A stretch of DNA of 64,000 nt from Terriglobia bacterium. Lineage in GTDB: Bacteria; Acidobacteriota; Terriglobia; Terriglobales; Acidobacteriaceae. Under the pieces are notes generated by a model. It did no database searches. It was given only the letters and a program-made list of their open reading frames with translations, and had not been told where the DNA came from. Location: the NCBI GenBank assembly GCA_020073495.1, contig JAIQFD010000002.1, positions 434,001-498,000 of the forward strand. The letters run 5' to 3'. Of the stretch, positions 37,634 through 49,889 are shown in pieces; position 1 is the first letter of the stretch; every line of letters begins with the position of its first letter. A program made the position numbers and the translations under genes.

Positions 37634-39112
37634 ATGCCCAAGAGCGCAGAACACGTGACCGTGGCCGGAGTGGACCTGGACCGCAGGCGTCCGGGCTCGC
37701 TGGCCACGCAGCTCTACGAAGGGCTGCGCCACGCCGTGCTGCGCGGGCAGATACGTCCTGGCGAGCGCCTTCCTTCCACGCGAGTGCTGGCTGCCGATCT
37801 CGGCGTGTCCAGAAACACGGTTACCAGCGCGTATGAGCAGCTCCTGGCCGAGGGCTACATAGAGGCGAAGGTGGGCTCAGGGACTTGCGTTGCGCGTTCG
37901 TTGCCCGACGAGCTGCTATCGGCCACTGTTGATTCCATAAAGGTCAAGAAGAAGCGCGTGCGGCGGCGATCACTCTCGACCCGTGGCAAGATGCTGTCCA
38001 GTCGCCCGGTGCGCGTGCTGACGGTGGCAGGAAGGCCACAGCCGTTTGCCTCCGGCCTGCCGGACCTGCACGAGTTCCCGTACGCCACGTGGGCGCGTCT
38101 GATGGCGCGGCATTGGCGGCGTCCTGGGTACAACCTGGTCGGTTATGGCGACCCGGCCGGCTACAAGCCACTGCGAGAAGCGATCGCTTCCTATCTGCGC
38201 GGTTCGCGTGCAGTGCGCTGCGAGACGGAACAGGTGGTCATCGTCAGCGGCTCCCAGCAGGCGCTGGACATCTCGGCGCGTCTCTTGCTCGATCCCGGCG
38301 ACACGGCACTGCTGGAAGACCCGGGATATCCGGGGGCACGTGTGGCGCTCAGCGCCGCCGGAGCATCGCTGGTCCGCCTGCCCGTGGACTCGGAAGGTGC
38401 CGACATCACTGCCGCCGCTGGTAGCAAGGCCCACGTTGCCTTCGTCACGCCCTCGCACCATTTCCCGCTTGGCGTGACCATGAGCATCACGCGGCGCCTC
38501 GCGCTACTGGAGTGGGCGGAGCGAAACGGCGCGTGGGTTCTGGAGGATGATTACGACAGCGAGTACCGATATCGCGGCAAACCCCTGCCGTCGTTGCAGG
38601 GATTGGACCCGGCGGGCCGCGTCGTGTACATGGGCAGCTTCAGCAAAACAATGTTCCCATCGCTGCGCCTTGGGTTCCTCGTGCTTCCGCCCGAACTGGT
38701 GGAAGCATTTCGCCGGGCGCGCTCGGTGATCGACGGACACTCCCCGATGACGGAGCAGGCGGTGCTTGCCGACTTCATCTCCGAAGGCCACTTCGCGCGA
38801 CACATCCGCCGCATGCGGGCGCTCTATCAAGAAAGGCAATCGGCGCTGGTGGAGGCGGCGCGCGGCGAACTCGAAGGCCTGCTCGAGATCCGTCCGTCGG
38901 ACGGCGGCATGCACCTGGTGGGCTGGTTGCCGATCGGCGTGGACGATGTGGAGGCGTCCGAGCGCGCCCTGGCTCACGGCGTGTATACGCGCCCGCTGTC
39001 GTCGTGCTCGGTGGCGAAGGTCCGTCGCGGGGGACTGCTGCTCGGCTACGCCGCCCTGACCATCCCTCAGATACGCGAGGGGGTGAGGAAGCTCGCACAG
39101 GCGCTGCGCTGA
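37634..39112 (+). CDS. pdxR: MocR/PdxR-type GntR regulator with aminotransferase domain
   Basis: 492 aa. Residues about 18-85 are a GntR winged helix (LATQLYEGLRHAVLRGQIRPGERLPSTRVLAADLGVSRNTV, given here as a span). After a basic linker, residues about 130-492 are a fold-type I aminotransferase domain that senses PLP: SGSQQALDISARLLLDPGD, EDDYDSEYRY, and the PLP lysine in GSFSKTMFPSLRLGF. Divergent placement from pdxST argues for PdxR; the regulator may activate or repress these genes. Its ATG follows the -10-like box closely, so the transcript may be leaderless. Confidence 0.88.
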   Translation: MPKSAEHVTVAGVDLDRRRPGSLATQLYEGLRHAVLRGQIRPGERLPSTRVLAADLGVSRNTVTSAYEQLLAEGYIEAKVGSGTCVARSLPDELLSATVDSIKVKKKRVRRRSLSTRGKMLSSRPVRVLTVAGRPQPFASGLPDLHEFPYATWARLMARHWRRPGYNLVGYGDPAGYKPLREAIASYLRGSRAVRCETEQVVIVSGSQQALDISARLLLDPGDTALLEDPGYPGARVALSAAGASLVRLPVDSEGADITAAAGSKAHVAFVTPSHHFPLGVTMSITRRLALLEWAERNGAWVLEDDYDSEYRYRGKPLPSLQGLDPAGRVVYMGSFSKTMFPSLRLGFLVLPPELVEAFRRARSVIDGHSPMTEQAVLADFISEGHFARHIRRMRALYQERQSALVEAARGELEGLLEIRPSDGGMHLVGWLPIGVDDVEASERALAHGVYTRPLSSCSVAKVRRGGLLLGYAALTIPQIREGVRKLAQALR

Positions 39113-39655: not shown

Positions 39656-39710
39656 AGTCGCAGGACGCAGGTCGTGCGTCGCAGGCAAATCCGCCTTGCG
39701 ACCTGCGACT
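39656..39710. repeat. Palindromic repeat, CGCAGG family
   Basis: AGTCGCAGG (39656-39664) and CCTGCGACT (39702-39710) flank internal copies of GTCGCAGG and CCTTGCGACC. It fills the gap between the methyltransferase stop and the thioesterase start. Confidence 0.55.
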
Positions 39711-40297
39711 CACGGTTTGGGACTGGGTTTCTTCGCCACCAGTTCCGCCACGCCTCTTTCTTGGACTGTCTCCCGGTAATACAGCACGTTGAGATCGCGG
39801 AAGGCCTCGAGCAGTTCGTCGCGGTCGAGGAAATACATCGGATTTCTTGGGCCCTTGGCGAACTTGCGGTGTTCCTTGGTATAAGTCTTGTACAGAAGCA
39901 TGCCACTGGGTTTGAGCGCGCGGATGAGGGCAGGGAAGAGCTCGCGCTGAAGATAGAAGAAGACGAGGATCAGATCGAAACTCTCGGGCTCGAGCCTGTA
40001 AGTATTGAGGTCGCGGACGAGGAAATCGAGCTGTAGGTGCCCTCGCCCTGCCTTGGCCAGGGCCTTCTGCGCTGCGACTTCGGAAATATCCACCACCGTG
40101 ACCTTCCACCCGCGCCGGCCAAGCCACAAAGCATGGCGTCCGAGGCCGCCGGCGACGTCCAACGCCGTCCCGGCCCTGGGGAATAGCGGACGAACGTATT
40201 CCTCGTAGGCGGATACCAGGAACGGGTCGGGGGTGAAGTTGGCGTGCGACCCTTCGCGGTAGCGCTGGTCCCAGGCTTGGCGTTCGTCTTTCGGCAT
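39710..40297 (-). CDS. Class I SAM-dependent methyltransferase (TehB-like)
   Basis: 195 aa. Motif I is TALDVAGGLGRHALWLGRRG at about 44-63, motif II VTVVDIS with Asp 69 or so, and a later FDLILVFFYLQRELFPALIRAL segment. It opens with WDQRYREGSHANFTPDPFL, found in TehB/UbiE-like small methyltransferases involved in tellurite or thiopurine methylation, but the substrate is not identifiable. It seems to be monocistronic and ends inside the palindromic repeat. There are 235 nt to the divergent radical SAM gene with no other feature seen. Confidence 0.85.
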   Translation of the reverse strand: MPKDERQAWDQRYREGSHANFTPDPFLVSAYEEYVRPLFPRAGTALDVAGGLGRHALWLGRRGWKVTVVDISEVAAQKALAKAGRGHLQLDFLVRDLNTYRLEPESFDLILVFFYLQRELFPALIRALKPSGMLLYKTYTKEHRKFAKGPRNPMYFLDRDELLEAFRDLNVLYYRETVQERGVAELVAKKPSPKP

Positions 40298-40532: not shown

Positions 40533-41636
40533 ATGGCGGAGTTACAGACCCGGAGCTACCACGCGAATAACTTCGTGCGGGCGTTCCGTCGCTGGTTGGT
40601 TCCTTACGTTCAATCCCGCATCATGGCGGAACAGTTCCGCCCCCTGCTGTCGTACCTGTTCACCGAGTGGAAGTGCAACGTCGATTGCCATTATTGCTGG
40701 GCATTCAACAACAAGGTGAAGGGCATGACGGAGGAGACCGCGATCCGCTCCATCGACTGGCTGAAGTCGGTGGGATGCCGCGTGATCGCCATCATGGGCG
40801 GCGAGCCGTTGCTGCGCCGCGACATGATCCTGAAGGTCGTCGATTACGGCACCAAGAACGGCTTTTTCGTGTATCTGCCCACCAACGGCATCCTCATGAA
40901 CGAGGACTTCATCGACCGCGTGGGCGACCTGGGTGTGGCTGCCATCAACCTGGCCGTGGACGCGCTCGAAGAGAGGCCGGGCCTGCCTAAGAACCTGAAG
41001 CGCATCCGCAAGCAGTTCGACTACCTGGTGAAGCAGCAGCAGAGGTACGGCTACATGATCGTGTTCAACACGAACATCTGCCGCAACAACATCGAGGACG
41101 TGTACAAGCTCACCGAGATCGCGCACGATGCCGGCATCTCCACCGACGTGCACATCAACGAGCCGCCCTACATCGAGCAGCCGCACTTCCAGCACCTGAA
41201 CGACAACGTGACCTACATCATGAAGGAAGATTGGCCGCGGGTGGACGCCATCCTCGACTGGCTGATCGAGAAGAACGCGCAGGGCTACATCATGGTGAAT
41301 AGCAAGGACCACCTGCGTAAGATGAAGGACTTCATGCGCGGCATCACCTACCCGTGGAACTGCCGCGCCGGCCACAACTCGTGCGTGATCCGCACCGACG
41401 GTACGCTGGCGCCTTGCTTCCCGATGTATAGCGAGACCAAGGTGGACTGGGGCAGCATCGAGGACCCGAAGTTCGACAATGCCCAGCTCGACGAGATGAA
41501 GAAGGTGTGCAACTCGCACTGCCTCTCCACCTGCCAGTACGTGCTTGGCTACTACTACAACAACGCCCACGTGCTGCGCTGGATCCTCAAGCAGGGTTTG
41601 CACGGCTGGACCGGGCGCGCCACCACCGATAATTAG
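40533..41636 (+). CDS. Radical SAM protein with SPASM-like C-terminal cysteines
   Basis: 367 aa. The cluster motif CNVDCHYC (Cys 48, 52, 55) and GGEPLLR (about 91-97) are complete. The C-terminus has at least six more cysteines (NCRAGHNSC, LAPCF, VCNSHCLSTC), resembling the SPASM/twitch auxiliary cluster of RiPP maturases and PqqE-like enzymes. The strong ribosome site AAGGAGG lies 5 nt before ATG 40533. It is followed by a terminator, then the sigma-54 activator gene. The nearby repeat-peptide gene and a PqqD-like domain protein make a peptide-modifying role plausible, but the distance (1.8 kb) and separate transcription leave this open; HpnH-like functions are an alternative. Confidence 0.85.
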   Translation: MAELQTRSYHANNFVRAFRRWLVPYVQSRIMAEQFRPLLSYLFTEWKCNVDCHYCWAFNNKVKGMTEETAIRSIDWLKSVGCRVIAIMGGEPLLRRDMILKVVDYGTKNGFFVYLPTNGILMNEDFIDRVGDLGVAAINLAVDALEERPGLPKNLKRIRKQFDYLVKQQQRYGYMIVFNTNICRNNIEDVYKLTEIAHDAGISTDVHINEPPYIEQPHFQHLNDNVTYIMKEDWPRVDAILDWLIEKNAQGYIMVNSKDHLRKMKDFMRGITYPWNCRAGHNSCVIRTDGTLAPCFPMYSETKVDWGSIEDPKFDNAQLDEMKKVCNSHCLSTCQYVLGYYYNNAHVLRWILKQGLHGWTGRATTDN

Positions 41637-41794: not shown

Positions 41795-43213
41795 ATGACC
41801 GCGCGCGTGTCGACCGCCGCCACCGAAACCACCCCACGGCAGTGCGTTGTGATCTTCACCACGGACGAGCTTGTGCTGCCCGAGGTCGAGCAGTTTCTTG
41901 CTGCCGATTTCGACGCGTTCTTCTTGAGCGCCTGGGACCAGGTCGTCCCCTTTCTGGAGCAGCAAACCCCGCACGCCTTGTTCCTGGACATCGACACCGT
42001 GGGGGAGACCAGCAATGACGGCCTGCGCGCCATCCAGCAAGTACGCTCGCTGGCGCCCGATATCGTTCTGATCGCCCTCACCCGTTCCAACAGCCGTAAC
42101 CTGCGACTGAGAGCAGAACAGTACGGCGCAGATGAGTATTTCATCGCGCCCGTGGACTTCCAGGAGCTGCGCATCGTGCTCGGCCGGGCACTGGAGAAGC
42201 GGGCCGCGGAGATTGAGGCGCGCAGGTTGCAGGAAGAGGTGGCGGCCAAGCAGTCCTTCTGCGACATGATCGGCGGCAGCGAATCGATGCAGATGGTATA
42301 CGACGCGGTCCAGCGAGTGGCCGCCAGCAACACCACCGTCCTGATCCGCGGGGAAAGCGGAACCGGGAAAGAGCTGGTCGCGCGGGCCCTCGTAGCGTGC
42401 AGCCCGAGGGCAGGGAAGCCTTTCGTCAGCATCAATTGCTCGGCGCTGCCCGACAGCCTCATCGAAACGGAGCTGTTCGGGCACGAGAAAGGTGCTTTCA
42501 CCGACGCACGCGAGGCCCGCGCCGGCCACATCGAGCTCGCGCACACCGGCACTCTCTTCCTCGACGAGATCGCCACCCTCGGCCTGCCGCTGCAATCCAA
42601 GCTGCTGCGGGTGCTGGAGGACCGCGTGGTGACCCGCATCGGCGGCAAGACGGCGAAGAAGATCGATTTCCGACTGATTGCCGCATCCAACGAAGACCTG
42701 GAGGAGATGGTGCAGGCGGGCCGCTTCCGCGAGGACCTCTATTACCGCATCAACGTCGTTCCCATTGTCCTGCCTCCGCTGCGCGAACGAGCCGGCGACA
42801 TCGCCATCCTGGTGGACCACTATCTCCGCCTGTATTGTTCGGCAAACAATGTGCCGCTCAAACGCATGGACCCCGAAGTCCTGGAAGTGCTCGAGCAGGA
42901 CGAATGGCCGGGGAACGTGCGCGAGTTGGAGAACCTGATCCAGAGGCTGGTGCTGATGGCGGACGGGCCGACCATCAAGATGCGCCACCTTCCGCAACGC
43001 ATCCTCTACAGCGCCACGGCCAGCCAGGAATCCATTCTCATCCCCGAACAGGGCATCCACTTCGACGAAGAGATGGAGCGCATCGAAGCCGCGTACGTGC
43101 AGGCTGCCCTGCGGCGCACCGGCGGAACGAAGTCTGCCGCCGCCGCCCTGTTGCACATCAATGCGCAGAAGATGAAATATCTCTGCCGCAAACACAACAT
43201 CACAAAGGTTTAA
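41795..43213 (+). CDS. Sigma-54-dependent activator with degenerate receiver domain
   Basis: 472-aa NtrC-type regulator. Residues 15-130 have a receiver-like fold, with Asp 65 in FLDID but without the usual acidic start and the conserved lysine (IAPVD in its place), so phosphorylation is doubtful. The AAA+ domain (about 155-385) has Walker A GESGTGKE (186-193), the sigma-54 loop GAFTDA (233-238; GAFTGA in most activators), Walker B LFLDEI, and the arginine-finger segment FREDLYYRINV. A Fis-like HTH is at 430-470. GGAAGGAACGCA precedes the ATG. The next gene has a perfect sigma-54 promoter, so this protein is its likely activator. Confidence 0.92.
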   Translation: MTARVSTAATETTPRQCVVIFTTDELVLPEVEQFLAADFDAFFLSAWDQVVPFLEQQTPHALFLDIDTVGETSNDGLRAIQQVRSLAPDIVLIALTRSNSRNLRLRAEQYGADEYFIAPVDFQELRIVLGRALEKRAAEIEARRLQEEVAAKQSFCDMIGGSESMQMVYDAVQRVAASNTTVLIRGESGTGKELVARALVACSPRAGKPFVSINCSALPDSLIETELFGHEKGAFTDAREARAGHIELAHTGTLFLDEIATLGLPLQSKLLRVLEDRVVTRIGGKTAKKIDFRLIAASNEDLEEMVQAGRFREDLYYRINVVPIVLPPLRERAGDIAILVDHYLRLYCSANNVPLKRMDPEVLEVLEQDEWPGNVRELENLIQRLVLMADGPTIKMRHLPQRILYSATASQESILIPEQGIHFDEEMERIEAAYVQAALRRTGGTKSAAAALLHINAQKMKYLCRKHNITKV

Positions 43214-43347
43214 AAATTGACCCTGATGGGGATTAATTTCTTACCAGTGTGACTTTTTGACTCCCCGTTTTGGAACGCCGGCGCAACCCCCCACACGTAA
43301 CTCCTTGCGAATCAGCGGCCAGAGATTCCAGTGGCCGCCATGGCCTT

Positions 43348-43363
43348 TGGCACGTCTCTTGCA
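43348..43363 (+). promoter_or_regulatory. Perfect sigma-54 (-24/-12) promoter
   Basis: TGGCACG (43348-43354), 4 nt, TTGCA (43359-43363), matching TGGCACG-N4-TTGCW exactly. Transcription should begin near 43375, about 60 nt before the NKLAP peptide gene. An inverted repeat GCGGCCA (43315-43321)/TGGCCGC (43332-43338) lies just upstream; activator sites farther upstream were not identified. Confidence 0.85.
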
Positions 43364-43436
43364 CTTACACTCGGCGTAACGCCGATGGGAAATCGAACCC
43401 CGGCGGCTCAAATCGAGAATTCTGAGGGAGGAAAAA

Positions 43437-43817
43437 ATGTCGGTCCAGAAAAAGTCCCTGATCAATACGCAGGCCGCCGCGAAGAAGGCCATCCTGGCCA
43501 CCAGCAAGCTGGCGACCGCGAAGCTGTCCCCGAACAAGCTGGCGCCCAACAAGCTGGCCCCGAACAAGCTGGCCCCGAACAAGCTGGCGCCCAACAAGCT
43601 AGCCCCGAACAAGCTGGCGCCCAACAAGCTAGCCCCGAACAAGCTGGCCCCGAACAAGCTGGCGCCCAACAAGCTAGCCCCGAACAAGCTGGCGCCCAAC
43701 AAGCTAGCCCCGAACAAGCTGGCGCCCAACAAGCTAGCCCCGAACAAGCTGGCCCCGAACAAGCTGGCCCCTAACAAGCTGGCGCCGAACAAGCTGGCCC
43801 CGATGAAGTTCAGCTAA
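43437..43817 (+). CDS. Cationic repeat peptide, 18 tandem NKLAP units
   Basis: 126 aa: a 32-residue N-terminal part (MSVQKKSLINTQAAAKKAIL, then ATSKLATAKLSP), 18 exact NKLAP repeats, and the end MKFS. There are 25 lysines and no acidic residue, and no classical signal peptide or cysteine. GGGAGG lies 6 nt before the ATG, and the sigma-54 promoter lies upstream. All differences between DNA repeats (GCG/GCC, CCC/CCG/CCT, CTG/CTA) are silent only in this frame, which supports coding. The protein has no classical A(D/N)Lxx pentapeptide pattern. I do not recognise the family; an exported, perhaps processed peptide is the leading idea, based on the M50/HlyD genes alongside. Confidence 0.88.
   Translation: MSVQKKSLINTQAAAKKAILATSKLATAKLSPNKLAPNKLAPNKLAPNKLAPNKLAPNKLAPNKLAPNKLAPNKLAPNKLAPNKLAPNKLAPNKLAPNKLAPNKLAPNKLAPNKLAPNKLAPMKFS
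43533..43802 (+). repeat. 15-nt tandem repeat array, 18 copies
   Basis: Eighteen 15-mers of the form AACAAGCTGGCCCCG with four main synonymous variants. Copies 3-7 and 8-12 have the same order of variants, showing a 75-nt segmental duplication. No spacers, so not CRISPR. Confidence 0.97.
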
Positions 43818-43880: not shown

Positions 43881-46043
43881 TTACCAGAGCTTTCGTCGCG
43901 CGAAGTCGTGCACAGCTTCCAAAGTAAGTCCCGCGATACTGCGTCGCCGAACGAATATCTTGGCGTCGCCGGTCATCCCGTCTCGCAGCCGGCCGCCGCC
44001 CCCGGAAACCGTGATAGTCACAGGATAGTACCGGGTGCTCTCGACTCCTGTGTATTCCTCTTCCTCTGAGATCTTTACCGCCTCCCGGGAGGCAGCAGGG
44101 GCGATGCGGGCGACGACTCCCGGTATGGACCGGAAGTATCCCGCGGGGCGGATCACCGCCGGGGCGCCTTGGCGAACGTTGCGCACCAGGGCTTCCGGGA
44201 GATAAACGCGGGCAGAAAAGCTCGAGGTGTCCGCCACTTCGGCGATCTCGCGTCCGGCACCGACGTATGAGCCCATGAGGTCCCCCATGCGGGGCGTCTG
44301 CAGAACGCCGGCGATGGGGCTGGAGATCGTGAGCTCGGTCACCTGGTCGTGCAGCAGTTTTTCACGAACCCCCAGTTCCCGGGATCGCGCCTCAGCCGAC
44401 CCGTAGTCGGCGTAGCGAAGCTGGGCTTCAACGGTGCGCGCCTTCGCCATCGCCGCCTCGGAGCTTACGCGCTCGGCCTCGGACTGCAGGGGCAGGTTGC
44501 GCAGAATGACCAGGGGGGCGCCGGCCTGGACTGAATCGCCTTCTGCGACTCGAACTGCAACCACCGTCCCCGGCACGCGCGCTCGGACTACTGCCCGACG
44601 GGAGGGTTCCAGAATGAATCGACCGTCCACGGTTTCCCGCCACACCGGAGCGAAGAGCAGGACGAGAGCGGCGACAGCCAGAGCAGCGCGATGGCTACCC
44701 GGCCGCAGCCACTCCCGTACACGGTCTTTCTTATCCAAGTAAACAAGTTTCATAAACCTACCAAAGGTCAGGATCCGTGACTTGAAGACCAGCCATGCCA
44801 GAAGACCGGCCGGCACGAATGCCCAGTCCGGACTGTAACTGTGGGCGATGTTGTAGGCGAAATTCACCACTACGAAAAGCAGGGTATAGCCGTACGCGGA
44901 AGATAGGATGGTGTACGGTACGTAGAGCAATTTGCGACGGAAAGTGGTCGCGGGCACATCCACTGGCAAGCGGAAAATATTCCGCCGTACCCAGGCCGAG
45001 AGAAATGCCGTCGAGTTCTCCTTCAGGTCCCCGATCTCCAGCATCTCCGTGAAGATGTAGTAGCCGTCAAGTTTGATCAAAGGATTCAGATTGATGGCCA
45101 CCGGCAGCAAGCCGGATACGAGCATCAGCAGGTAAGCAAAATTGTGGACGGGGGTGCCGGCTGCCGTCCCCCACCAGATGAAGCTGGCCACCGAGCAGAT
45201 CAGCATCGTTATCCAGATCCCGGCCGTCACCGTCGCGATCCGCTGCCACTTGCTGCCGTAGACCCACGCTTCCGTCGTGTCGCAGAAGAACGCCGGCGAG
45301 AGATAGATCAGCAGAAAGCCCATCCGGTGCGCGCCTCCGCCTGTGTGCTTGCAAGCAAAGCCGTGCGCCGTCTCGTGGATCAGACCGATGGTCGCCAGTA
45401 ACACCCAGATCTCCAGGATCGACCCGAAGCCCTTCTCCGAGAAGTTGAACATCTGCATGGTGTCGCGCGCGATCGCGCTCCAGTGCGACGCGAAGATGTA
45501 GACCATGAACGCGAACATGATGAGGTTCAGGGTCACGAACCAGCGGCTGAAAACGAGGTGGCCGATGCGGTCGTGGAGCCAGGTCAGGAAGGGGTCGGGA
45601 TCCCACGCCGAGAACGAGATCTCGGACAGGTCCCCATACTTCGATTTCTTCTTGACGCGTTTTCGGCGCTCCTCCTTCAGTGTCTCCCACAACGCGATGT
45701 TCTTCTCCTGCTCCGACTTGTACCAGTACTTCTCATTGCGAGTCTCGGTGGCAAAACCCTCAATGACGTCCGGGGTACACGGGCTGCCGGTCTGCTGCGC
45801 AAAGAGGTCGGCGATCTCCTCGTAGCTGCGCTGGCCATCGAACAGCTGCAGCAGTGCCCACTGTTGGGGCTCGAACACGTAGTAGTTGTGGATCTCGGGA
45901 ATGAGCAGCAAAACCACGGGGCGGCCTTCCTGGAGCTGCTCCCGCACGATGATGGAGGGATCCACGCGCGGCGGTCGCTCCACGCGGACCGCCTCCGCCG
46001 GCAGTTCCGGCAGCGCTATGTTGAGGGCCTCAAGGATGTTCAT
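43881..46043 (-). CDS. PqqD-like / M50 site-2 protease / HlyD fusion protein
   Basis: 720-aa protein. Residues about 25-90 resemble the PqqD/RRE peptide-binding fold (PRVDPSIIVREQ, FDGQRSYEEIADLF). Helices at 165-460 form an M50 peptidase with HETAH (223-227) and the second motif NLNPLIKLDGYY (about 325). Residues about 465-720 are a HlyD-type adaptor with lipoyl-like halves (ARVPGTVVAVRVAEGDSV; SPIAGVLQTPRMGDLMGSYV). Such proteins are related to YydH/SkfC-type peptide proteases and bacteriocin export. The ATG overlaps the preceding HlyD stop (ATGA). I infer that it binds, cleaves and passes a peptide to the HlyD parts; the NKLAP peptide is the obvious candidate. Confidence 0.88.
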   Translation of the reverse strand: MNILEALNIALPELPAEAVRVERPPRVDPSIIVREQLQEGRPVVLLLIPEIHNYYVFEPQQWALLQLFDGQRSYEEIADLFAQQTGSPCTPDVIEGFATETRNEKYWYKSEQEKNIALWETLKEERRKRVKKKSKYGDLSEISFSAWDPDPFLTWLHDRIGHLVFSRWFVTLNLIMFAFMVYIFASHWSAIARDTMQMFNFSEKGFGSILEIWVLLATIGLIHETAHGFACKHTGGGAHRMGFLLIYLSPAFFCDTTEAWVYGSKWQRIATVTAGIWITMLICSVASFIWWGTAAGTPVHNFAYLLMLVSGLLPVAINLNPLIKLDGYYIFTEMLEIGDLKENSTAFLSAWVRRNIFRLPVDVPATTFRRKLLYVPYTILSSAYGYTLLFVVVNFAYNIAHSYSPDWAFVPAGLLAWLVFKSRILTFGRFMKLVYLDKKDRVREWLRPGSHRAALAVAALVLLFAPVWRETVDGRFILEPSRRAVVRARVPGTVVAVRVAEGDSVQAGAPLVILRNLPLQSEAERVSSEAAMAKARTVEAQLRYADYGSAEARSRELGVREKLLHDQVTELTISSPIAGVLQTPRMGDLMGSYVGAGREIAEVADTSSFSARVYLPEALVRNVRQGAPAVIRPAGYFRSIPGVVARIAPAASREAVKISEEEEYTGVESTRYYPVTITVSGGGGRLRDGMTGDAKIFVRRRSIAGLTLEAVHDFARRKLW

Positions 46044-46939
46044 GGTGCGTGGTCGAGCCGCACGTTAGCCGTCATCCCAGGCCGCATCTCTCCAGGATCT
46101 CCCGTAAGCTCGGCCACGACCTCGATGGTGCCGCTGGAAGGGTCCACGACAGGGCTGATGAGGATGACCTTCGCGGCGTGCTTGATCTCCGGCGCGCTCG
46201 CGGAAATGACGGTCAGCTGTTCTCCCTTCTTTAGCTTTCCGATAAAACGTTCCGGCAGAGTGAACTTCACGCGCAGCGGGGCCACGGCGGTCACCCAGAA
46301 AAGGCGCTCGCCGCTCGCCACCCGCTGGCCGGCCCTGATGTAGCGTCGCGCCACCACTCCATCGAAGGGCGCACGGATGGCTGTCTTCTCGAGCTCGAGC
46401 TCGAGCGAACGCTGCGCTGCGCTGCTCTGTGCCAGCAACTCCTCCATGTTCTTCACGTTCCACTGGTCCGAAATCAGCTTGTAGGAGGCGTGGTCCAGTT
46501 GCTCTTTGGTGATGAGCTGCGCCTCCCACATCTTCTGGGCGCGCTCAAGATCGACTTCGAGCACCTTGAGTTCGGCCTGCCAGTTCTTCAGGTCAGCTTC
46601 CTGGGCCCGGGTCTTTGCCTTCGCTGCATCGAGGTCGGCGGTCAGTTGCCGGTCGTCCAAGCGGGCCAGCAAGTCGCCCTTTTTCACCGTCATTCCCGGC
46701 TCAGCGGAGATCTTCGTGACCACACCATCTCGTTGCGCTTGCACGTCAACCTGGTTTTCCACGATCACCGGGCCCGAGGCGATGAACGGACTCTCAGCCG
46801 CGGGAGTGGACGTCAATGCGGAAGCGGCTTCGGCCTTGGTCGGCAGACCCACTGCCCGCGTCGTTTCTCGGGACGTGTCGCATGCCGTCCACGTGCACAC
46901 GGTGATTGCGACCAATGCTACCAGCAAGGCTCGCCTCAT
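46040..46939 (-). CDS. HlyD-family adaptor lipoprotein
   Basis: 299-aa periplasmic adaptor with a lipoprotein signal (LLVALVAITVCTWTAC, Cys about 19). Lipoyl halves are QAQRDGVVTKISAEPGMTVKKGD and TAIRAPFDGVVARRYIRAGQRV, separated by a coiled coil at about 110-195. AAGGAGG precedes ATG 46939 by 6 nt; the longer frame enters the upstream gene. It lies 11 nt after the GAF-HlyD gene and overlaps the M50 gene. No ABC or RND pump gene is present, which is unusual for HlyD adaptors. Confidence 0.88.
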   Translation of the reverse strand: MRRALLVALVAITVCTWTACDTSRETTRAVGLPTKAEAASALTSTPAAESPFIASGPVIVENQVDVQAQRDGVVTKISAEPGMTVKKGDLLARLDDRQLTADLDAAKAKTRAQEADLKNWQAELKVLEVDLERAQKMWEAQLITKEQLDHASYKLISDQWNVKNMEELLAQSSAAQRSLELELEKTAIRAPFDGVVARRYIRAGQRVASGERLFWVTAVAPLRVKFTLPERFIGKLKKGEQLTVISASAPEIKHAAKVILISPVVDPSSGTIEVVAELTGDPGEMRPGMTANVRLDHAP

Positions 46940-46950
46940 TTTCGGCCTCC

Positions 46951-49356
46951 TTACCACCCGACCCATGACCATACCTTCTCCCAGATCCACATTGTCGGCC
47001 GGCGCAGGAGTACAAAGCCTGCGGAGTGCCAGCCGGTACTGATCTTACTTCGGCCCTGCATACCCGCCCGGATGAGACCTTCAGCATTGGGAACGCTGAC
47101 GCGGGCGAAGAACATCCGCTGGTTCCCCACAAGCTGACTCTTGGGGCTGAGCACGACGACGTCGCCGCGGAATGTCTTGGTCGGGAAGCCCTCGAGCTTC
47201 ACGACTGCCTTCTCGCCGAGCTGAAGCAGGTTCACGTCCTTCTCATCCAGGGCGATGTCCATGACAGCGTGCGAGTTATCCACGACTTCGGCGAAGGTGT
47301 CGCCGTACGCCAAGCGTCTTCCCGCAAGGTTCTCCACATGGGGAGTGGCTACGACGCCGTTGATCGGAGAGCGCAAGTTGGTCTTCTCGAGGCGCTCCTT
47401 GGCGCGCGCAAGTTCCGCCGTCCAGTAGTTGACTTGGACCTGCTGAATGCCGGCCTCGGTGCCGTCGTTGCGGGCAAGGGCTTGGTTCATCCTCAGCGTC
47501 GACTCCTCGCGCTTGGCCTGCGCTGCCAACACCGCAGCACGGAAATCCCAGTCGTCTAGCTTGGCGAGAATGGTCCCTTGCGCGACGAGATCGCCTTCTC
47601 GCACAAGAACACGCTGTACCACTCCTTCGACCTCGGGCTGGATCTGAGCGGTATGTGCTGGGGCCACGGATGCTGTGCCGTCCACTCTCATCGGGAGGGG
47701 GAACACGGCGAGGAAGAGCACTGCAGCCGCGGCGAGGACCATGGCTGCCTTCTGCCGGCTCTTCTCCATCGCGAGGAACTTCTGTTTCCTGTGGAGCAGC
47801 GGCTCCAGCACCCCGATGAAGGGCACCTCGGTGTACATCTGCGCGTTACGCAGCGCCACCGTTGCCTGGCTTACCAGCACTTTGATCATCTCCAAATGGA
47901 CCAGGCTGAGGAACCCGGGATCGCTGCTCTCGAAACTCAGTATGCCGACCCGTCCCTGGTCATCGGTGAGAGGGAGCGCATAGAATCCCCGCGCGCCGGT
48001 TTCCGCGAAGTATTCTCTGAACTTGGCTCGCGTCTCTTCGCGTTCGGCATCGATCTCTTCATCACGTTGCGTGATCCATATCTCTTCTTTCGATATCGAT
48101 GCCCACTGCAGCAATTGATCCAGGCGTCGGATGCTCGGGTCGTTTCGGTCGATCTGGGGCATGCCTGACACGGCGCCCAGCTGCAGCTTGCCGCTCTTTT
48201 CGATCGCGATCGCAGCCCGCTCATACGGGATCACGGCCTGAGGACCGTTCACGATGGTCTGCATGACCCGATCGAGGTTCAGCGTCGAGGTGATCTCCTG
48301 GCTGACCTTGACCAGCGTTTCCAGGATCTCCACCTTGCGTTCCGCCTGGAGCAGGCTGGCATTGTGCAAGGCGTTGCTGGCCGTCTCGCACATGGTGGTG
48401 AGCAGGAACTGCTCGTCTTCGTCGAAGGCCGTGCCGTCGGTCCGGTTGATGGCCTCGACCACGCCCACCAGCGACCCACGGTCCATGACCGGGGCCGCGA
48501 CAAGGGTGAACACCGCGCCCTCTTCAACCCCCTGGTTCCGGCGCGCCAGGCGTTCGTCATTCGGGTCCTCGATGAGCACCGGTTCGCCTGAATCGGAAAT
48601 GTCTCCCGCCACGCCTTCGCCGGGCCGCTGCTGCGCGCCGATGGCGGCGGTTATGTCAACGCCCGCTTGGCTCGTCAGCGCCACGCCGTCGCCCCCCACC
48701 ATCCACAGGTTCACCGCCTGGACGTTCATGATCTCGTGGAATTTCGACGTGATCATGTTCATGAGGTCGTCCATCTCGAGGTTTGAGTTGAAGACCTTTT
48801 CCAGGTCGTACATCTGGGTGATGCGGGTCAGCGACTCGAGCTGGGTGTTGCGCTCGTTCTCGTAGGCCATGCCGGTGGCCAGTGCCACGGCGGCGTATCC
48901 TGCGATCTCCTCGATGATGCTGACGTGGGCCGCGGTAAGCGGCTTGTCGAAGGTGACGACCTCGATGGCTCCGATCAGCATGTCGTCGAGCGCCAGCGGC
49001 ACGACCGCCAGCGACGTCATGGTGCGCCGGATGTTCAGGTGCGCGTAGGTTTCGCGCGTCAGGTCTTTGACGGCATACAACACCGATTCCAGCTTGCCCG
49101 GGATGGCGCTCAGCGTGCCCGCGTCGAACGGAACCGTGGGGTCGTTCAGCGAGATGTCGCCCACGGTCGCCTTCGGTACCCACTCGGGGTTATTTTCGGG
49201 GTCGGGAACGATGTACACGACCACTCCGCTGTCGGGAATCAATTCGGCCACCTGCGCCGCGGTCAGTCGGGCACGCGGTTCGACCTCGCGTTGGGCCAAA
49301 AGGGCGGCGGCGAATTCCTCAAGCGGGACGGCGAATCCCGGTTTCTGAGTCGCCAT
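46951..49356 (-). CDS. Triple-GAF membrane protein with periplasmic HlyD domain
   Basis: 801 aa. The cytosolic half contains three GAF-like domains (about 25-165, 190-345 and 350-515; e.g. RGFYALPLTDDQGRVGILSFES in the last). A membrane helix at about 550-572 (AAMVLAAAAVLFLAVFPL) leads to a periplasmic HlyD adaptor (575-770: IQPEVEGVVQRVLVREGD; NLRSPINGVVATPHVENLAG) and a tryptophan-rich end. I know no standard family with this order; it suggests that export is gated by an intracellular small ligand. GAGGAGG lies 9 nt before the ATG. First gene of the export operon, behind a TTGACA/TATAGT promoter. Confidence 0.87.
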   Translation of the reverse strand: MATQKPGFAVPLEEFAAALLAQREVEPRARLTAAQVAELIPDSGVVVYIVPDPENNPEWVPKATVGDISLNDPTVPFDAGTLSAIPGKLESVLYAVKDLTRETYAHLNIRRTMTSLAVVPLALDDMLIGAIEVVTFDKPLTAAHVSIIEEIAGYAAVALATGMAYENERNTQLESLTRITQMYDLEKVFNSNLEMDDLMNMITSKFHEIMNVQAVNLWMVGGDGVALTSQAGVDITAAIGAQQRPGEGVAGDISDSGEPVLIEDPNDERLARRNQGVEEGAVFTLVAAPVMDRGSLVGVVEAINRTDGTAFDEDEQFLLTTMCETASNALHNASLLQAERKVEILETLVKVSQEITSTLNLDRVMQTIVNGPQAVIPYERAAIAIEKSGKLQLGAVSGMPQIDRNDPSIRRLDQLLQWASISKEEIWITQRDEEIDAEREETRAKFREYFAETGARGFYALPLTDDQGRVGILSFESSDPGFLSLVHLEMIKVLVSQATVALRNAQMYTEVPFIGVLEPLLHRKQKFLAMEKSRQKAAMVLAAAAVLFLAVFPLPMRVDGTASVAPAHTAQIQPEVEGVVQRVLVREGDLVAQGTILAKLDDWDFRAAVLAAQAKREESTLRMNQALARNDGTEAGIQQVQVNYWTAELARAKERLEKTNLRSPINGVVATPHVENLAGRRLAYGDTFAEVVDNSHAVMDIALDEKDVNLLQLGEKAVVKLEGFPTKTFRGDVVVLSPKSQLVGNQRMFFARVSVPNAEGLIRAGMQGRSKISTGWHSAGFVLLRRPTMWIWEKVWSWVGW

Positions 49357-49453: not shown

Positions 49454-49482
49454 ACTATAACAACGGGTACATCGGGTGTCAA
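49454..49482 (-). promoter_or_regulatory. Sigma-70 promoter of the GAF-HlyD/M50 operon
   Basis: Minus strand TTGACA (49482-49477), 17-nt spacer, TATAGT (49459-49454). It directs the leftward operon starting at 49356, so export genes appear to be under housekeeping sigma while the peptide gene is under sigma-54. Confidence 0.75.
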
Positions 49483-49550
49483 CGCGCGGCCGCGGCGTGA
49501 AATGCCCGTCTATTGCGGCGTTGCCGCGTCGCCGCGCCGGAGGAGACCAT

Positions 49551-49889
49551 TTGGATATCAGCGTTCTCAAGCGTTCTGGCGTGCAGGTCATCAAGCTGAG
49601 GGGCGACCTGAAGATCGGAGAAGCGGTGGATGAGTTCCGCCACACGATCGAGGAACTGCTCGCGAGCGGCGACGCCCGGCTGGTGGTCAGCATCGGCGAG
49701 GTGCCCATGATCGACTCCAGCGGCATCGGCGTGCTGGTGCGCTCGCTGACCACGGCCAAGCAGAAGGGTGGATCCCTCAAACTGGTGAACCCCTCCAAGC
49801 TCGCCCTGCAGACCCTGAAGATCGTCGGCCTGCTCGCCCTGTTCGAAGTGTTCGATGACGAAGCCGCGGCGGTCGAGTCTTACAGCTAG
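49551..49889 (+). CDS. STAS-domain anti-sigma factor antagonist
   Basis: 112-aa SpoIIAA-like protein. The phosphorylatable serine lies in IDSSGIGVLVRSL at about 58-70. STAS proteins bind anti-sigma kinases in partner-switching. TTG at 49551 has GGAGGAG five nt upstream (AGGAG-accat-TTG) and gives a normal length; the upstream extension is Arg-rich and unlike STAS. The gene overlaps the HAD gene by 35 nt. Its partner kinase is not in the window. Confidence 0.9.
   Translation: MDISVLKRSGVQVIKLRGDLKIGEAVDEFRHTIEELLASGDARLVVSIGEVPMIDSSGIGVLVRSLTTAKQKGGSLKLVNPSKLALQTLKIVGLLALFEVFDDEAAAVESYS

What the first reader, a model, noticed from the sequence alone, without database searches (positions are those of the whole stretch)
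43437..43817. A cationic peptide of 18 exact NKLAP repeats, coded in a protected frame
The 126-aa product has 25 lysines and no acidic residue. Every difference among the 15-nt repeats is synonymous in this frame but not in the overlapping frames, which read EQAG-type or GASLF-type peptides. A copy order shared by units 3-7 and 8-12 shows segmental expansion. This indicates selection on the exact pentapeptide. The peptide could be a RiPP precursor, an antimicrobial or surface polymer, or a signal.
Basis: partly seen in the sequence, partly recalled or inferred. Interest (0 to 1): 0.92.

Follow-up and report, generated by a model that had tools for sequence, protein, structure and literature searches.

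The report
Leader-guided secretion of species-specific repeat peptides
Soil Acidobacteria carry a small gene whose protein starts with a shared tag but ends in a short motif repeated many times, the motif differing between species, next to a membrane protease and export-type protein predicted to recognise the tag.

Summary
In detail: 43437-43817 encodes 126 aa with 18 exact NKLAP units, all differences third-codon. It belongs to a precursor family that my searches found undescribed. In 60 distinct precursors, window included, the N-terminus (consensus M..QKKSLI.......KKAI.A) is shared, while the core is a tandem repeat that differs between lineages: LKPGA in the congener, elsewhere SPLSN, GLSGGK, TPHARV, acidic DAGSMAA. 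Adjacent and convergent lies a 720-aa protein: a predicted leader-binding RRE domain, an M50 intramembrane protease resembling the daptide protease, and a HlyD adaptor. Leader and protein occur in the same 12 of 61 relatives. Sigma-54 sites precede the peptide gene, not the other module genes. No modifying enzyme or ABC transporter was seen in more than a few of 39 neighbourhoods. Core similarity tracks the RRE-M50 protein. Best reading: a sigma-54-induced precursor bound by its leader to RRE-M50-HlyD, cleaved, and exported as a lineage-specific repeat polypeptide. Binding, cleavage, export and activity are inferred. Cationicity is common (56 of 60), not universal. New variant of RRE-dependent, RiPP-like systems.

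The parts
43348..43363 (+). sigma-54 (-24/-12) promoter TGGCACGTCTCTTGCA, starting 89 bp before the ATG
   Evidence: Full consensus match. A site with GG...GC at this spacing is the best hit before 60 of 60 peptide genes; 39 of 60 score >=17.5 against 1 of 116 upstream regions of the other module genes.
43424..43431 (+). ribosome-binding site GAGGGAGG
   Evidence: Sequence itself; GGAG-like stretches before homologues.
43437..43499 (+). leader MSVQKKSLINTQAAAKKAILA (21 aa)
   Evidence: K5 K6 L8 I9 K17 A18 A21 invariant in 12 aligned leaders (the KK.LI part was also the search motif, so its invariance is partly by selection; K17, A18 and A21 were not selected for). The leader profile finds exactly the 12 of 61 relatives that have the M50 protein.
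43500..43532 (+). transition TSKLATAKLSP; a cut after the conserved Ala21 is proposed by inference
   Evidence: Translation; the cleavage site is inference only.
43533..43802 (+). core: 18 x NKLAP (270 bp)
43803..43817 (+). C-terminal tail MKFS and stop
41795..43213 (+). sigma-54 activator (receiver-like + AAA + HTH_8)
   Evidence: Pfam Sigma54_activat 7e-68, Response_reg 8e-7, HTH_8 5e-6; clustered in 33 of 39 long loci.
43881..46043 (-). RRE-M50-HlyD protein, 720 aa, convergent with the peptide gene
   Evidence: NCBIfam daptide intramembrane metalloprotease profile E=2.6e-45, 155 bits, below its cutoff of 300; HlyD_3 3e-12; HExxH and NP..LDG invariant in 11 sequences. The comparison loci were fetched by this protein.
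45717..45980 (-). predicted RRE domain (residues 22-109 of the M50 protein)
   Evidence: AF2 model, 10-residue block means of pLDDT over 90 from 31 to 100; best structural matches are RRE proteins, 6jx3_B Z 9.4, rmsd 3.1 A over 83 residues.
45363..45377 (-). HETAH zinc motif (residues 223-227)
   Evidence: H223, E224, H227 invariant in 11 sequences.
46040..46990 (-). HlyD/RND-type periplasmic adaptor, possible lipoprotein
   Evidence: TIGR01730 RND_mfp E=1e-49, above cutoff; clustered in 33 of 39 loci; the lipoprotein reading is by eye from the N-terminus.
46951..49356 (-). GAF-HlyD fusion (GAF domains + adaptor)
   Evidence: GAF_2 8e-28, HlyD_D23 5e-20; 38 of 39 loci.
49476..49889 (+). STAS-domain protein, frequent neighbour, accessory
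   Evidence: STAS 2e-15; 19 of 39 loci.

Best explanation
The gene encodes a two-part precursor: a conserved N-terminal leader that acts as an address tag, and a lineage-specific tandem-repeat core that is the product. A sigma-54 activator encoded next door switches on the peptide gene specifically. The predicted RRE at the N-terminus of the neighbouring membrane protein binds the leader, its M50 intramembrane zinc protease domain cuts the leader off (perhaps after the conserved Ala of KKAI.A), and its HlyD adaptor domain, with the other HlyD adaptor and the GAF-HlyD fusion, passes the repeat polypeptide across the envelope, where it acts outside the cell or at its surface. Shown: the gene module, promoter, leader conservation, co-occurrence, within-array constraint, core turnover, covariation of core with the RRE-M50 protein. 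Predicted: RRE fold, protease class. Inferred: leader binding, cleavage and its site, export, extracellular action.
For: Shared leader with replaced core in 60 distinct precursors; congener leaders 20 of 21 identical with different cores; in a second genus (G130/G177, genus label) the first 21 residues are identical with different cores. The same 12 of 61 relatives hold leader and M50 protein. Of the 60 loci with at least 37% identity, 50 have more than 300 nt beyond the M50 match and 49 of these have the peptide convergent and adjacent. RRE fold by AF2 with Foldseek and VIA-align. M50 match to the daptide protease profile; published daptide MpaP is an RRE fused to an intramembrane site-2 protease proposed to remove the leader (PMC10036551, passages). 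Sigma-54 sites before the peptide gene only. Third-codon bias 802 of 1027. Core similarity tracks M50-HlyD identity after control for the other three genes (partial r 0.60 in 33 loci, 0.47 in 27, p 0.001), strongest in residues 161-300 (0.47) and absent in 456-590 (0.07).
Against: No modifying enzyme, ABC transporter or outer-membrane channel is conserved near the module, so energy source and exit route are unknown. Cleavage, export and activity are untested. No Foldseek match reached E<=0.001; VIA-align's own note warns that Z under 8 may mean a common arrangement; overall pTM 0.54. By sequence the RRE is weak: PqqD hits in 8 of 42 (best E 0.014), fewer than the unrelated MRP-L47 (10 of 42, best 4e-4). 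Partial Mantel tests are anticonservative for related sequences, the 33 loci were my selection, and core and M50 gene are neighbours, so linkage may contribute. One pair with partly different cores (L174/L176) shows no excess M50 divergence (69% against GAF-HlyD 68%). In G001 leader and M50 gene lie on different contigs, joined only by the shared LKPGA array, so a wrongly binned contig is not excluded. In the phylum sample only 8 of 12 same-family genomes with a strong M50 hit have a leader-profile hit: three have diverged leaders seen by eye and in one (G318) the M50 gene is cut by a contig end. Three of 60 cores are not significantly repetitive; L125 has flank but no recognisable peptide.
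Confidence: 0.6

Rival explanations
1. Multi-core precursor: after leader removal the repeat is cut into many copies of one short peptide (for NKLAP up to 18 pentapeptides per chain), which acts as a signal or toxin.
For: Exact units with third-codon-only variation in the window and a strong third-codon bias in the family.
Against: Some cores have no clearly separable unit (LGK, APKVAPKI, TVKSTVRS), best protein periods range from 3 to 13, and no second protease is conserved in the neighbourhoods (clusters judged by eye).
Confidence: 0.13
2. Regulated proteolysis switch: the peptide is a substrate of the M50 protease whose cleavage feeds back on the sigma-54 activator or the GAF-HlyD sensor; the core is a spacer.
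For: M50 site-2 proteases often serve signalling (established knowledge); activator, GAF and STAS proteins are neighbours.
Against: A spacer would not need an exact unit within each array; by eye no transmembrane segment in the peptide; HlyD domains point to export.
Confidence: 0.1
3. A surface or matrix polymer for which only bulk physical properties matter, so units drift neutrally between lineages.
For: Small, flexible, mostly cationic residues (A, S, K, G, L, V, T, P lead), 33 aromatics and 2 Cys in 3988 core residues; a single-sequence AF2 model shows no fold for the core (pLDDT 63, pTM 0.17; such models are weak evidence).
Against: Units are kept exact within arrays although third positions have diverged, and core type covaries with the RRE-M50 protein. 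As a final role it is compatible with the best explanation.
Confidence: 0.1
4. Cytosolic histone-H1-like or nucleic-acid-binding Lys-rich protein.
For: Weak hits to HC2 (E=0.028) and a histone-H1-like family (5e-7, 30 bits against a cutoff of 80), probably from composition.
Against: Acidic (DAGSMAA, net -18 to -20) and Lys-poor (GGLQG) cores in the same family; pairing with the RRE-M50-HlyD gene.
Confidence: 0.04

Closest known systems
Daptides (MpaA precursor, MpaP protease)
   Same: Leader-core precursor next to an RRE fused to an intramembrane site-2 protease; the NCBIfam daptide protease profile is the best match for the M50 part; published MpaP architecture (PMC10036551 passages).
   Different: No daptide modifying proteins among the conserved neighbours; no ELExMEAP motif and no invariant C-terminal Thr in the precursors; extra HlyD domain; tandem-repeat core; sigma-54 promoter.
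Epipeptides YydFGHIJ
   Same: Membrane-bound protease YydH thought to release the peptide (PMC7026026 passages); YydH/LiaK profile matches weakly (E 4e-9).
   Different: No module-associated radical SAM gene, no conserved ABC transporter seen, repeat core, periplasmic adaptors.
RRE-dependent RiPPs in general (lasso peptide B1 proteins, PqqD, heterocyclases)
   Same: Predicted RRE fold, residues 22-109.
   Different: The RRE is fused to protease and HlyD adaptor; no installed modification predicted.
HlyD/RND periplasmic adaptor systems
   Same: Three adaptor-domain proteins.
   Different: No cognate ABC, RND or TolC gene conserved in the neighbourhoods (an RND pump appears near 2 of 39 loci by eye); one adaptor is fused to GAF domains, one to RRE-M50.

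Membership tests
RRE-dependent RiPP precursor/processing system | Conserved leader and variable core in a short precursor | tested here: met
   12 aligned leaders, 60 precursors.
RRE-dependent RiPP precursor/processing system | RRE domain in an adjacent protein | tested here: met
   By predicted fold only: matches to solved RREs; sequence profile weak; binding not tested.
RRE-dependent RiPP precursor/processing system | A post-translational modifying enzyme | tested here: not met
   None conserved in 39 neighbourhoods, clusters judged by eye; the radical SAM gene is in 6 of 12 relatives with the module and 14 of 49 without. An unlinked enzyme is not excluded.
Daptide | RRE fused to intramembrane site-2 protease | tested here: met
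   (prediction).
Daptide | Invariant C-terminal Thr and ELExMEAP motif | tested here: not met
   Precursors end in S, N, K, L, I, E and others; leader is KKSLI...KKAI.A.
Daptide | Decarboxylase, aminotransferase and methyltransferase genes | tested here: not met
   Not among the conserved neighbours. The window's methyltransferase (39710-40297) and GntR/aminotransferase (37634-39112) recur only near a few loci.
Epipeptide (YydF) | Linked radical SAM epimerase | tested here: not met
Pentapeptide-repeat (HetL-like) proteins | A(D/N)LXX pattern with five-residue period (recalled) | tested here: not met
   Best periods 3-13 across the family; HetL profile E=0.074 for the window and 4.7e-4 for L126, both far below cutoff.

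The most novel reading that the evidence does not exclude
A bacterial secretion system, distinct from known RiPP classes, in which a leader-reading RRE, an intramembrane protease and a periplasmic adaptor are one polypeptide that matures and exports unmodified repeat polymers, the sequence of the repeat acting as a rapidly diversifying, lineage-specific identity (for kin recognition, antagonism or self-assembly) that coevolves with, and may be exchanged together with, the protease-exporter.
Probability: 0.33. Interest if true: 0.93.

Novelty: new variant of a known kind. Interest (0 to 1): 0.84.

Why it matters
It points to a family of precursors in Acidobacteria, abundant but little understood soil bacteria, in which a fixed address tag is attached to a repeat motif that changes between congeneric species yet is kept exact within each gene. 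That pattern, with covariation between core and the RRE-M50 protein, suggests sequence-specific function and offers a natural collection of repeat polypeptides with one tag-directed maturation route, testable in cultured Edaphobacter and Granulicella (named isolates). If the route works as inferred it would be a modular way to secrete repeat peptides.

Tried and rejected
Radical SAM/SPASM gene (40533-41636) as the modifying enzyme: found next to the module in the window, G001 and G026 only, of 12 genomes compared; genome-wide in 6 of 12 relatives with the module and 14 of 49 without. Rejected as a module part.

Overlapping ORFs (43241-43792 minus, 43331-43774 plus): by-products of the array; the differences are non-synonymous there.

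Histone-like protein: rejected because of acidic and Lys-poor homologues. Pentapeptide-repeat fold: rejected because periods range from 3 to 13.

Codon-position count over whole cores gave a weak result (pooled pN/pS 0.78; pN<pS in 26 of 57), because it includes the non-repetitive transition and uses lags chosen on protein. It was replaced by the frame-blind nucleotide-lag test, limited to the 48 of 60 arrays above the score threshold.

Defence library: only pVip hits, to the radical SAM gene. Peptide family libraries: no family above cutoff for the window peptide or eight others; among the weak hits is a RiPP precursor family, TigB, for the DAGSMAA peptide (E 0.0088).

Non-acidobacterial M50 relatives (L128-L137, 10 loci): no repeat ORF under 350 aa above my threshold; other precursor types are not excluded. 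Loci with weaker M50 matches (L156-L165, L167, L168): no repeat ORF; L151 and L152 end too soon. L115: none found. L120/L153 and L124/L155 (the same genomes) have an LT..Q leader but no repeat.

Selections and dropped rows: one search kept the best 80 of 242 relatives; its 60 loci with at least 37% identity form my close group, a cut made after seeing the data. Peptides were found by a KK[S/N..]LI-type motif, with near-misses examined by eye. One search used 35 loci that I chose; L071 (same genome as L172) and L055 (broken M50 gene) were dropped before alignment, leaving 33; L171, L173, L175, L177, L108 and L112 were dropped for the dereplicated test (27). Of the 13 pairs I quote eight. In the phylum sample the leader profile at E<=0.01 hits 11 of 396 genomes, three weakly (E 0.006-0.007, probably chance), and misses KKSLT and KKSIV leaders.

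Literature: eight searches found no paper describing this system; most subscription papers are not held. PMC13252029: outline, abstract and find passages; PMC12710340, PMC7470986, PMC10036551 and PMC7026026: passages only. Other papers: search listing only.

Full report
WHAT IS THERE. The window holds an ORF at 43437-43817 (126 aa): MSVQKKSLINTQAAAKKAILA, a short transition, 18 exact NKLAP units and MKFS. All nucleotide differences between units fall on third codon positions (columns 9, 12 and 15), and units 3-7 and 8-12 share the order BACAC. There are 25 Lys and no acidic residues. A consensus sigma-54 promoter starts 89 bp upstream. It is the only hit with at most one mismatch in 64 kb, but shuffles give 1.64 on average, so its weight comes from conservation.

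THE NEIGHBOURHOOD. Upstream is a sigma-54 activator (41795-43213). Convergent and downstream is a 720-aa protein with M50 and HlyD parts (43881-46043), then a HlyD-type adaptor (46040-46990) and a GAF-HlyD fusion (46951-49356); a STAS protein follows. The first 165 residues of the 720-aa protein were modelled from 42 sequences (mean pLDDT 78.5, pTM 0.54, block means over 90 from residue 31 to 100). Foldseek's top six rows are TbiB1 and a lasso peptide B1 protein, solved with leader peptides (E 0.011 to 0.15, none at E<=0.001). VIA-align gives 6jx3_B Z 9.4 (rmsd 3.1 A, 83 aligned), TbiB1 8.6, TigE 7.8 and PqqD 7.4. Below follow further RRE proteins (ThcOx, TruD, PbtF, SkfB by name in the output; 4v1v and 5wgg are LynD and CteB as I recall), mixed with proteins of other function such as PKMT methyltransferases, Rv2067c, GdmN and NovN. 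Z under 8 alone may mean a common arrangement, by the tool's note. Sequence profiles see PqqD only weakly (8 of 42 members, best E 0.014; an unrelated family, MRP-L47, hits 10 of 42). The M50 part matches the NCBIfam daptide intramembrane metalloprotease profile (E 2.6e-45, 155 bits against a cutoff of 300). HExxH and NP..LDG are invariant in 11 aligned sequences.

THE FAMILY. Among 61 relatives, 12 carry the RRE-M50-HlyD protein (E<=1e-60) and exactly the same 12 carry the leader (E<=0.001). In an evenly drawn phylum sample the match is looser: of 12 genomes of the window's family with a strong M50 hit (E below 1e-170), 8 have a leader-profile hit. G286, G373 and G404 have diverged leaders (KKSLT, KKSIV) before repeat cores, and in G318 the contig ends inside the M50 gene. 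A genome-contig scan found 242 relatives and kept the best 80. Sixty of these have at least 37% identity. Ten of the 60 end within 300 nt of the M50 match; of the other 50, 49 have the convergent peptide and one (L125) does not. Together with 11 precursors from other loci, the window included, this gives 60 distinct precursors: 57 have a significantly repetitive core (best periods 3-13), net charge is positive in 56 and negative in 4, 24 cores lack acidic residues, and the 3988 core residues hold 33 aromatics and 2 Cys. More distant acidobacterial M50 loci have convergent repeat peptides with other leaders: LQR-type repeats in L114, L117 and L126 behind a Lys-rich leader; KAPLRVGG, LRAGDQEA, AAPRV, SAKSMR and ASKSAL types in L118/L121, L119, L127, L150 and L154 behind a leader of the form V.I.LT..Q...I..ATG.

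REGULATION. A sigma-54-like site with GG...GC at the right spacing is the best upstream hit for 60 of 60 peptide genes (TGG...TGC in 58), starting 59 to 107 bp before the start codon. Mean score is 17.9 of 19.5 against 13.6 for mononucleotide shuffles; 39 of 60 reach 17.5 against 0.6% of shuffles. The score favours GG and GC, so the comparison with shuffles and with other genes is what counts: for the other module genes 1 of 116 upstream regions reaches 17.5 (29 each for GAF-HlyD, activator, HlyD adaptor and M50 gene).

SELECTION AND TURNOVER. In a frame-blind test 48 of 60 arrays passed the score threshold. All 48 have a lag that is a multiple of three, and mismatches by codon position are 165/60/802. 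A cruder count over whole cores gave no clear signal (pooled pN/pS 0.78; pN<pS in 26 of 57) because it includes non-repetitive stretches. Between congeners the unit is replaced: the window has NKLAP and G001 has LKPGA with leaders 20 of 21 identical; G130 has RLAES/KLAES and G177 has SPLSN with the first 21 residues identical. In L053 (the same peptide as L088), L108 and L112 the unit is largely kept and the number varies.

COVARIATION. Where the unit differs between congeners, the RRE-M50-HlyD protein is unusually diverged: window/G001 44% against activator 81% and GAF-HlyD 68%; G130/G177 62% against 87% and 85%. In same-unit pairs it diverges like GAF-HlyD (91/91, 90/91, 87/81, 96/95). A counter-example is L174/L176, with partly different cores but 69% against 68%. 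The activator tree joins window and G001 (SH-aLRT 100), while the M50 data reject that clade (AU p 4.4e-5, difference in lnL 149). In the M50 and GAF-HlyD trees G001 groups with L068 and L051, although by plain identity the window's GAF-HlyD is closest to G001 (68%), and no AU test was run for it. G001's core resembles L068's (similarity 0.46, sixth of all pairs). So core and M50 gene may have been exchanged together behind a retained leader and activator. Caution: in G001 the leader and the M50 gene are on different contigs that both end in the LKPGA array, so wrong binning is not excluded. Over 33 loci that I chose, core similarity correlates with M50-HlyD identity after control for activator, GAF-HlyD and HlyD adaptor (partial r 0.60; 0.47 in 27 dereplicated; Mantel p 0.001), not with GAF-HlyD or HlyD adaptor, and weakly with the activator (0.11-0.12, p about 0.03). 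By region: residues 1-21 0.27, RRE 0.36, linker 0.31, M50 161-300 0.47, M50 301-455 0.33, HlyD 456-590 0.07 (not significant), HlyD 591-720 0.31. Leader similarity shows no such trend except a marginal 0.19 (p 0.045) with HlyD 456-590. Simple linkage would predict the strongest signal nearest the peptide gene, at the HlyD end; that is not seen, but related sequences make such tests optimistic.

HOW IT PROBABLY WORKS. Sigma-54 activation makes the precursor; the leader docks on the RRE; M50 removes the leader; the adaptor complex passes the core outward. Published daptide MpaP is an RRE fused to an intramembrane site-2 protease proposed to remove the leader (PMC10036551, passages), the closest precedent. 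Among ORFs of at least 90 aa within 10 kb in 39 loci, the clusters beyond M50, GAF-HlyD (38), HlyD adaptor (33), activator (33) and STAS (19) reach at most 6 loci; I judged these clusters by eye, and saw no conserved modifying enzyme, ABC transporter or TolC. So the system fails the modification criterion of RiPPs as far as the neighbourhood shows, and it fails daptide and epipeptide criteria. It works like an RRE/site-2-protease maturation system but is not a member of either class. The final role (antagonism, recognition, surface polymer) is open; acidic and neutral cores argue against a purely cationic antimicrobial. A single-sequence AF2 model of the peptide gives a leader helix (4-23) and no core fold (pLDDT 63, pTM 0.17; weak evidence).

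NOVELTY. Eight literature searches and Pfam and NCBIfam scans gave no description of the peptide family or of the RRE-M50-HlyD fusion. The two RRE survey papers checked do not mention M50 or HlyD in their main text.

Noticed in passing
40533-41636: Radical SAM/SPASM gene 98% identical in the congener and 87-90% in three other genera, far more conserved than its neighbours; not linked to the module; function unassigned.
   Followed up: partly
46951-49356: GAF domains fused to a HlyD adaptor, an unusual sensor-adaptor fusion, in 38 of 39 loci; a STAS protein (19 loci) and in 6 loci a protein that looks RsbW-like by eye lie nearby.
   Followed up: partly
L055:5487-7596: M50-HlyD gene of G008 falls into two tblastn segments with a short gap: frameshift or sequencing error, although the peptide gene is intact.
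   Followed up: no
L093:10001-12142 and L109:7482-9632: Two M50-HlyD loci with different cores (VVGHSPK and RVQS) in one MAG (JAICSO01): paralogues or mixed bin.
   Followed up: no
L150:6822-7157, L154:5970-6584, L119:13013-13360, L127:13042-13488: A second leader type, V.I.LT..Q...I..ATG, before repeat cores in more distant acidobacterial M50 loci; no family above cutoff for L119 and L127 peptides.
   Followed up: partly
L046:31-174 and L057:6347-6694: Two G001 contigs both end inside an LKPGA array, so the repeat probably broke the assembly; such genes are likely under-represented in draft genomes.
   Followed up: no
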